From NCBI GenBank assembly GCA_018713745.1, contig DVOH01000028.1, forward strand, positions 1 through 40,879: a stretch of 40,879 nt of DNA. Reading direction: 5' to 3'. The DNA is from Candidatus Stercoripulliclostridium merdipullorum. Lineage in GTDB: Bacteria; Bacillota; Clostridia; Christensenellales; DTU072. A program made the position numbers and the translations under genes. Below the pieces are notes generated by a model that ran no database searches, was not told the DNA's origin, and saw nothing but the letters and a program-made list of their open reading frames with translations. The stretch's first letter is position 1; every line of letters begins with the position of its first letter. Shown here in pieces: positions 18,561-18,772 of the stretch.

Positions 18561-18589
18561 TTGACAGGCGGATTTTTCCGGTGTATCAT
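18561..18589 (+). promoter_or_regulatory. tracrRNA promoter
   Basis: TTGACA (18561-18566) - 17 nt - TATCAT (18584-18589); predicted +1 about 18596-18597, at the start of the anti-repeat. Confidence 0.8.
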
Positions 18590-18596
18590 AATAAAT

Positions 18597-18675
18597 AGAA
18601 TAACAAGCGTTCAAATACAAATTTATTCTAATCACTTGTCGCATTGGCGGCGCTCCCGTAAGGGAGATTTTTTTT
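18597..18675 (+). ncRNA. tracrRNA (about 75-80 nt, short form)
   Basis: Anti-repeat gaataacaagc (18598-18608) is an 11-nt perfect complement to the crRNA repeat GCTTGTTATTC. Then gt bulge and tcaaat (18611-18616) pairing with GTTTGA; ends in ctcccGTAAgggag (18653-18666) + T8. Confidence 0.9.
18653..18675 (+). terminator. tracrRNA Rho-independent terminator
   Basis: ctccc-gtaa-gggag-a-tttttttt. Confidence 0.85.
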
Positions 18676-18709
18676 GCCCTTTTGCTTCCCTTCTCGTTAT
18701 TATGGAATG

Positions 18710-18739
18710 ATTATATCATATTTACATGGGGCTTGTATA
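18710..18739 (-). promoter_or_regulatory. Candidate cas operon promoter
   Basis: Minus strand TATACA (18739-18734) - 18 nt - TATAAT (18715-18710) with extended -10 TGA; predicted 5'UTR of about 160 nt. Confidence 0.6.
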
Positions 18740-18740
18740 C

Positions 18741-18772
18741 AAAAAGGTGTCGCACAAAAGCGACACCTTAAA
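18741..18772 (-). terminator. Rho-independent terminator downstream of the membrane protein gene
   Basis: aaggtgtcg...cgacacctt (18744-18752/18761-18769) with T5 on the minus strand. Confidence 0.75.

What the first reader, a model, noticed from the sequence alone, without database searches (positions are those of the whole stretch)
18561..18720. tracrRNA is encoded entirely antisense to the predicted cas9 5'UTR
The tracrRNA (about 18597-18675, +) has its own promoter and terminator. The best candidate cas9 promoter (TATACA-N18-TATAAT, extended -10, 18739-18710, -) lies upstream, so the roughly 160-nt cas9 5'UTR would contain the complete tracrRNA complement. The 5'UTR includes a crRNA-repeat mimic (TTTGAACGCTTGTTATTC versus repeat GTTTGAGAAGCTTGTTATTC). 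Pairing could recruit RNase III to cas9 mRNA or titrate tracrRNA, giving a feedback loop different from the long-form tracrRNA repression known in S. pyogenes.
Basis: partly seen in the sequence, partly recalled or inferred. Interest (0 to 1): 0.75.

Follow-up and report, generated by a model that had tools for sequence, protein, structure and literature searches.

The report
tracrRNA antisense to cas9 mRNA leader
In this CRISPR-Cas9 locus the small helper RNA (tracrRNA) is encoded opposite the untranslated start of the cas9 message, an arrangement shared by at least 30 related bacteria and already known in one form from Group B Streptococcus; it makes cross-talk between the two RNAs possible, but a regulatory effect is not shown.

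Summary
The window carries a type II-A locus (cas9-cas1-cas2-csn2, five spacers). The tracrRNA (+, 18597-18674) has a near-consensus promoter and an intrinsic terminator and lies about 55 bp upstream of the cas9 ATG. The predicted cas9 promoter lies beyond the tracrRNA 3' end, giving a leader of about 161 nt that contains the full tracrRNA complement. In the window alone this is not decisive: a proximal candidate, TTGAAC-18-TATGAT, scores as well and would give no overlap. Relatives favour the distal promoter: in 34 scored loci it is significant in 23, the proximal in 7, the tracrRNA promoter in 32; distal beats proximal in 29. The proposed feedback loop is untested. The overlap stops short of the ribosome-binding site, whose predicted accessibility shows no systematic change. 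No S. pyogenes-type long-tracrRNA guide was found. The "repeat mimic" is simply the complement of the anti-repeat. The architecture has a precedent: Group B Streptococcus P2cas sits at the tracrRNA 3' end and alone suffices for immunity in CC-17 strains. What is added: a distal-promoter layout appears to be the rule in this order of Clostridia, which makes tracrRNA/cas9-leader cross-talk directly testable.

The parts
14496..18542 (-). cas9 (type II-A, 1348 aa)
   Evidence: TIGR01865 cas_Csn1, E 7.5e-241
18547..18552 (-). cas9 Shine-Dalgarno AAGGAG, outside the overlap
   Evidence: sequence; predicted accessibility same with or without the tracrRNA part of the leader
18561..18589 (+). tracrRNA promoter TTGACA-N17-TATCAT, filling the gap between the tracrRNA start and the cas9 RBS
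   Evidence: 11/12; p 0.002 vs shuffles; significant in 32 of 34 loci
18597..18674 (+). tracrRNA (anti-repeat at its 5' end, nexus hairpin, terminator)
   Evidence: anti-repeat pairs with the CRISPR repeat; nexus hairpin conserved
18653..18674 (+). tracrRNA intrinsic terminator
18710..18739 (-). distal cas9 promoter TATACA-N18-TATAAT, extended -10
   Evidence: counterpart significant in 23 of 34 loci
18543..18703 (-). predicted cas9 mRNA leader, about 161 nt, containing the complement of the whole tracrRNA
   Evidence: inferred from the distal promoter; not measured
18585..18614 (-). rival proximal cas9 promoter TTGAAC-N18-TATGAT (its -10 lies on the tracrRNA -10, its -35 in the anti-repeat)
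   Evidence: 9/12, p 0.030; counterpart significant in only 7 of 34 loci
18744..18769 (.). bidirectional terminator separating the locus from the upstream gene
13588..14496 (-). cas1
   Evidence: TIGR03639
13305..13646 (-). cas2
   Evidence: TIGR01573
12541..13308 (-). csn2 (type II-A marker)
   Evidence: TIGR01866
12197..12546 (-). CRISPR array, 36-nt repeats, five spacers; last repeat degenerate

Best explanation
A compact type II-A control region with two convergent promoters. The tracrRNA promoter sits between the tracrRNA gene and the cas9 start codon. [quoted passage not shown] start sites not measured). The cas9 leader therefore carries the complete tracrRNA complement, ending before the RBS. 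Most likely consequence (inferred): free tracrRNA pairs with some leaders, RNase III cuts the duplex, and what remains is a shortened but still translatable cas mRNA plus loss of some unbound tracrRNA, that is, weak coupling of the two levels rather than an on/off switch. I put about 0.75-0.8 on the architecture and about 0.4 on pairing having a measurable effect on either RNA.
For: Promoters and terminators in the window. In 34 loci with Cas9 at 34-52% identity the tracrRNA lies antisense directly upstream of cas9; distal promoter p<=0.05 in 23/34 (Fisher 5e-23), proximal 7/34 (1.5e-3), distal>proximal in 29/34 (Wilcoxon 1.7e-5), cas9 strand better than the opposite strand in 27/34. Several distal promoters are at or near consensus (L002 TTGACA-17-TATAAT; L017, L022, L036). 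RNase III is encoded in the genome. Interaction energy -95 kcal/mol for the leader versus -9 for one repeat. [quoted passage not shown]
Against: No transcript data. In the window itself the proximal promoter candidate scores as well as the distal one. In 11 loci the distal promoter is not significant; in two of them (L025, L026) an upstream gene in the cas9 direction appears to end just before the tracrRNA 3' end, so read-through is possible. Loci are related, so the combined p-values overstate independence; tracrRNA 3' ends were set partly by hand. Nothing shows an effect of pairing.
Confidence: 0.62

Rival explanations
1. Incidental overlap: the layout is compaction of two transcription units. 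The transcripts overlap, but tracrRNA is quickly bound by Cas9 and crRNA, and the leader by ribosomes or its own folding, so pairing has no effect.
For: RBS outside the overlap and SD accessibility not systematically changed. The GBS P2cas transcript crosses the tracrRNA gene and still gives immunity. The leader sequence is explained by tracrRNA function alone.
Against: A perfect duplex of nearly 80 bp is a strong RNase III substrate by general knowledge, and RNase III already acts on tracrRNA:crRNA. The layout is kept over wide divergence.
Confidence: 0.4
2. cas9 is transcribed from the proximal promoter (18614-18585, -), start near 18578, so there is no overlap; or both promoters are used, as P1cas and P2cas in GBS.
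For: Score 10.2, p 0.030 in the window; also significant in L019, L021, L022, L024, L026, L010.
Against: Not conserved (7/34). Its -35 is part of the anti-repeat and its -10 coincides with the tracrRNA -10 on the other strand, so chance resemblance is likely. The distal score is higher in 29/34.
Confidence: 0.2
3. Strong feedback loop: tracrRNA represses Cas9, or the leader titrates tracrRNA so as to control Cas9 activity.
For: Full complementarity and RNase III present.
Against: No RBS masking. Repression by free tracrRNA would give positive feedback (more Cas9, less free tracrRNA, less repression), not homeostasis. The GBS precedent shows function in spite of the overlap.
Confidence: 0.12
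4. S. pyogenes-type autorepression by a long tracrRNA guiding Cas9 to the cas promoter.
For: Known in other type II-A systems (PMC11417352).
Against: No guide-like match between the sequence upstream of the tracrRNA and the cas promoter beyond chance in the window or in the relatives compared; the gap has room for one tracrRNA promoter only.
Confidence: 0.04

Closest known systems
Streptococcus agalactiae P2cas (formerly srn036 promoter), distal cas promoter at the tracrRNA 3' end
   Same: cas mRNA starts at the tracrRNA 3' end and crosses the tracrRNA gene antisense; the only cas promoter in CC-17 strains (PMC12216829)
   Different: GBS usually also has P1cas and a long tracrRNA that represses it, and P2cas is repressed by CovR; here there is no room for a separate P1 and no tracr-L guide was found
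Streptococcus pyogenes type II-A locus with tracr-L autorepression
   Same: tracrRNA upstream of cas9 on the opposite strand; same gene order
   Different: cas promoter lies between tracrRNA and cas9 (own knowledge of the locus); two tracrRNA forms; regulation by Cas9 binding to DNA
Listeria monocytogenes type II-A locus
   Same: tracrRNA close upstream and antisense to cas9, promoter-like TGCTATAAT beyond its 3' end (L043, by eye)
   Different: different repeat and tracrRNA sequence; start sites not checked here
Noncanonical crRNAs from mRNAs in Campylobacter jejuni (Jiao et al. 2021, PMC8224270)
   Same: an mRNA segment pairs with the tracrRNA anti-repeat
   Different: here the mRNA is complementary to the whole tracrRNA, so a long duplex rather than a guide is expected

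Membership tests
type II-A CRISPR-Cas | Cas9, Cas1, Cas2 and Csn2 in one operon | tested here: met
   NCBIfam matches above cut-off, adjacent on one strand
type II-A CRISPR-Cas | 36-nt repeats with tracrRNA anti-repeat pairing | tested here: met
P2cas-type cas transcription (promoter beyond the tracrRNA 3' end) | cas-direction promoter at or upstream of the tracrRNA 3' end | tested here: met
   sequence and comparative evidence only
P2cas-type cas transcription (promoter beyond the tracrRNA 3' end) | measured start site there | not testable with these tools
   needs RNA data
tracr-L autorepression (S. pyogenes) | 5' extension of tracrRNA matching about 11 nt of the cas promoter next to a PAM | tested here: not met
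   longest match 8-9 nt in the window, chance level
cis-antisense RNA regulator of cas9 | full complementarity between the two transcripts | tested here: inconclusive
   holds if the distal promoter is used
cis-antisense RNA regulator of cas9 | effect of one RNA on the level of the other | not testable with these tools
   needs experiment

The most novel reading that the evidence does not exclude
Across a broad group of Clostridia type II-A systems, tracrRNA doubles as a cis-antisense regulator of the cas operon: unbound tracrRNA pairs with the cas9 leader and RNase III cuts both, so that Cas9 output is tied to the pool of unbound tracrRNA, in place of tracr-L autorepression.
Probability: 0.15. 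Interest if true: 0.75.

Novelty: new member of a known kind. Interest (0 to 1): 0.42.

Why it matters
How Cas9 levels are held in check is known mainly from streptococci. If most relatives of this locus have only the distal promoter, tracr-L repression cannot be the general solution, and every cas9 message in them is born complementary to the system's own guide-RNA cofactor. That is simple to test with strand-specific RNA data.

Tried and rejected
Rfam: no hit in the window. tracr-L style guide: rejected (the script stopped with an error at its last locus). RBS switch by leader folding: no systematic change, mean unpaired SD probability 0.59 full versus 0.60 truncated. Spacers targeting the control region: none, longest shared stretch 8 nt. 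Stray repeat copies as scaRNA-like elements: only the array itself within 3 mismatches. Cas9 relatives in viral contigs: none. Chylinski 2013, Workman 2021 and a 2023 NAR paper on CRISPR-derived regulatory RNAs are not held, so precedent in them could not be checked. Lactobacillus and Nicoliella plasmid loci: by eye they do not show the compact layout (in L. crispatus the tracrRNA appears to lie some 240 nt or more from the ATG; no adjacent tracrRNA was seen in the other two).

Full report
What is there. The window holds a type II-A locus on the minus strand: cas9 (14496-18542), cas1, cas2, csn2 and an array of 36-nt repeats with five spacers (12197-12546). Upstream of cas9, on the plus strand, lies the tracrRNA gene. 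Its promoter TTGACA-N17-TATCAT (18561-18589) and its terminator (18653-18674) are clear. Its anti-repeat pairs with the CRISPR repeat. On the minus strand a promoter with consensus -10 and extended -10 (TATACA-N18-TATAAT, 18739-18710) lies beyond the tracrRNA 3' end, directly after a bidirectional terminator (18744-18769) that closes the upstream gene. A transcript from it would have a leader of about 161 nt that contains the complement of the whole tracrRNA.

Is the distal promoter the right one? In the window alone this is undecided: a proximal candidate (TTGAAC-N18-TATGAT, 18614-18585) has a similar score (10.2, p 0.030 against 9.5, p 0.027). I therefore collected relatives: two from genome contigs, others from the same family and order, with Cas9 identity from 34 to 52%. 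In all loci whose upstream region was examined, a tracrRNA lies antisense directly upstream of cas9. Scoring sigma-70-type promoters against dinucleotide shuffles in 34 loci gave: tracrRNA promoter significant in 32, distal cas9-direction promoter in 23, proximal in 7. The distal score exceeds the proximal in 29 of 34 and that of the opposite strand in 27 of 34. The predicted leader has a median of 172 nt, and the -10 ends a median of 28 nt upstream of the tracrRNA 3' end. The proximal candidate in the window uses the conserved TTGAAC of the anti-repeat as -35 and the mirror of the tracrRNA -10, which makes chance resemblance likely. Limits: the loci are related, tracrRNA 3' ends were set partly by hand, and 11 loci lack a significant distal promoter, two of which (L025, L026) seem to have an upstream gene in the cas9 direction ending close by.

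How it probably works. The layout is two convergent promoters about 110 nt apart, start to start. The overlap ends about 55 nt before the start codon, so the RBS is not covered by tracrRNA. Folding the leader with and without its tracrRNA part does not change SD accessibility in a consistent way, which speaks against a translation switch. A full duplex would be much stronger than tracrRNA with a repeat (-95 against -9 kcal/mol), and the genome encodes RNase III, so trimming of the leader and loss of some unbound tracrRNA is the most plausible effect of pairing. Whether it matters to the cell is open. Note that if pairing represses cas9, the loop is positive rather than homeostatic: more Cas9 binds more tracrRNA and relieves repression.

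Comparison with the known. In Group B Streptococcus the cas operon has a distal promoter, P2cas, at the tracrRNA 3' end; [quoted passage not shown] An antisense RNA over the tracrRNA 3' end was found there earlier by dRNA-seq (PMC4448216). So a cas mRNA that crosses the tracrRNA gene is known and works. The S. pyogenes loop (tracr-L guiding Cas9 to the cas promoter; PMC11417352) has no visible counterpart here: no guide-like match was found in the window or its relatives. Listeria shows a similar layout by eye; the Lactobacillus and Nicoliella plasmid loci do not.

Verdict. Real, conserved, and with a precedent: a new member of a known kind. What is added here is that the distal-promoter layout seems to be the rule in this group, which makes cross-talk between tracrRNA and cas9 mRNA a concrete, testable question. 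No regulation is shown. Steps that are shown: gene content, promoters and terminators as sequence motifs, conservation of layout. Steps that are inferred: the cas9 start site, duplex formation, RNase III cleavage, any effect on Cas9.

Noticed in passing
window 12541-12555: The csn2 stop codon (TGA) is supplied by the first CRISPR repeat: csn2 reads through the leader end (CTTTTGAG, cf. ATTTGAG in L002 and L003) into GTT TGA. In L002 and L003 csn2 ends well before the repeat.
   Followed up: partly
window 18596-18631 (tracrRNA); alignment A1 columns 2-10 with 34-41: The 5' part of the anti-repeat can pair inside the tracrRNA with a conserved UUUAUUCU segment downstream of it; four pairs change on both sides (5 of 500 shuffles reach this). 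Free tracrRNA may hold its anti-repeat closed.
   Followed up: partly
window 18543-18644: The cas9 frame stays open upstream to an ATG at 18644, inside the tracrRNA complement; the conserved N-terminus places the real start at 18542.
   Followed up: no
L025 and L026, upstream of cas9: An upstream gene in the cas9 direction appears to end about 20 nt before the tracrRNA 3' end, with no clear distal promoter; cas9 may be read from the upstream gene.
   Followed up: no
window 12181-12216: The leader-distal repeat is degenerate in its 3' half.
   Followed up: no
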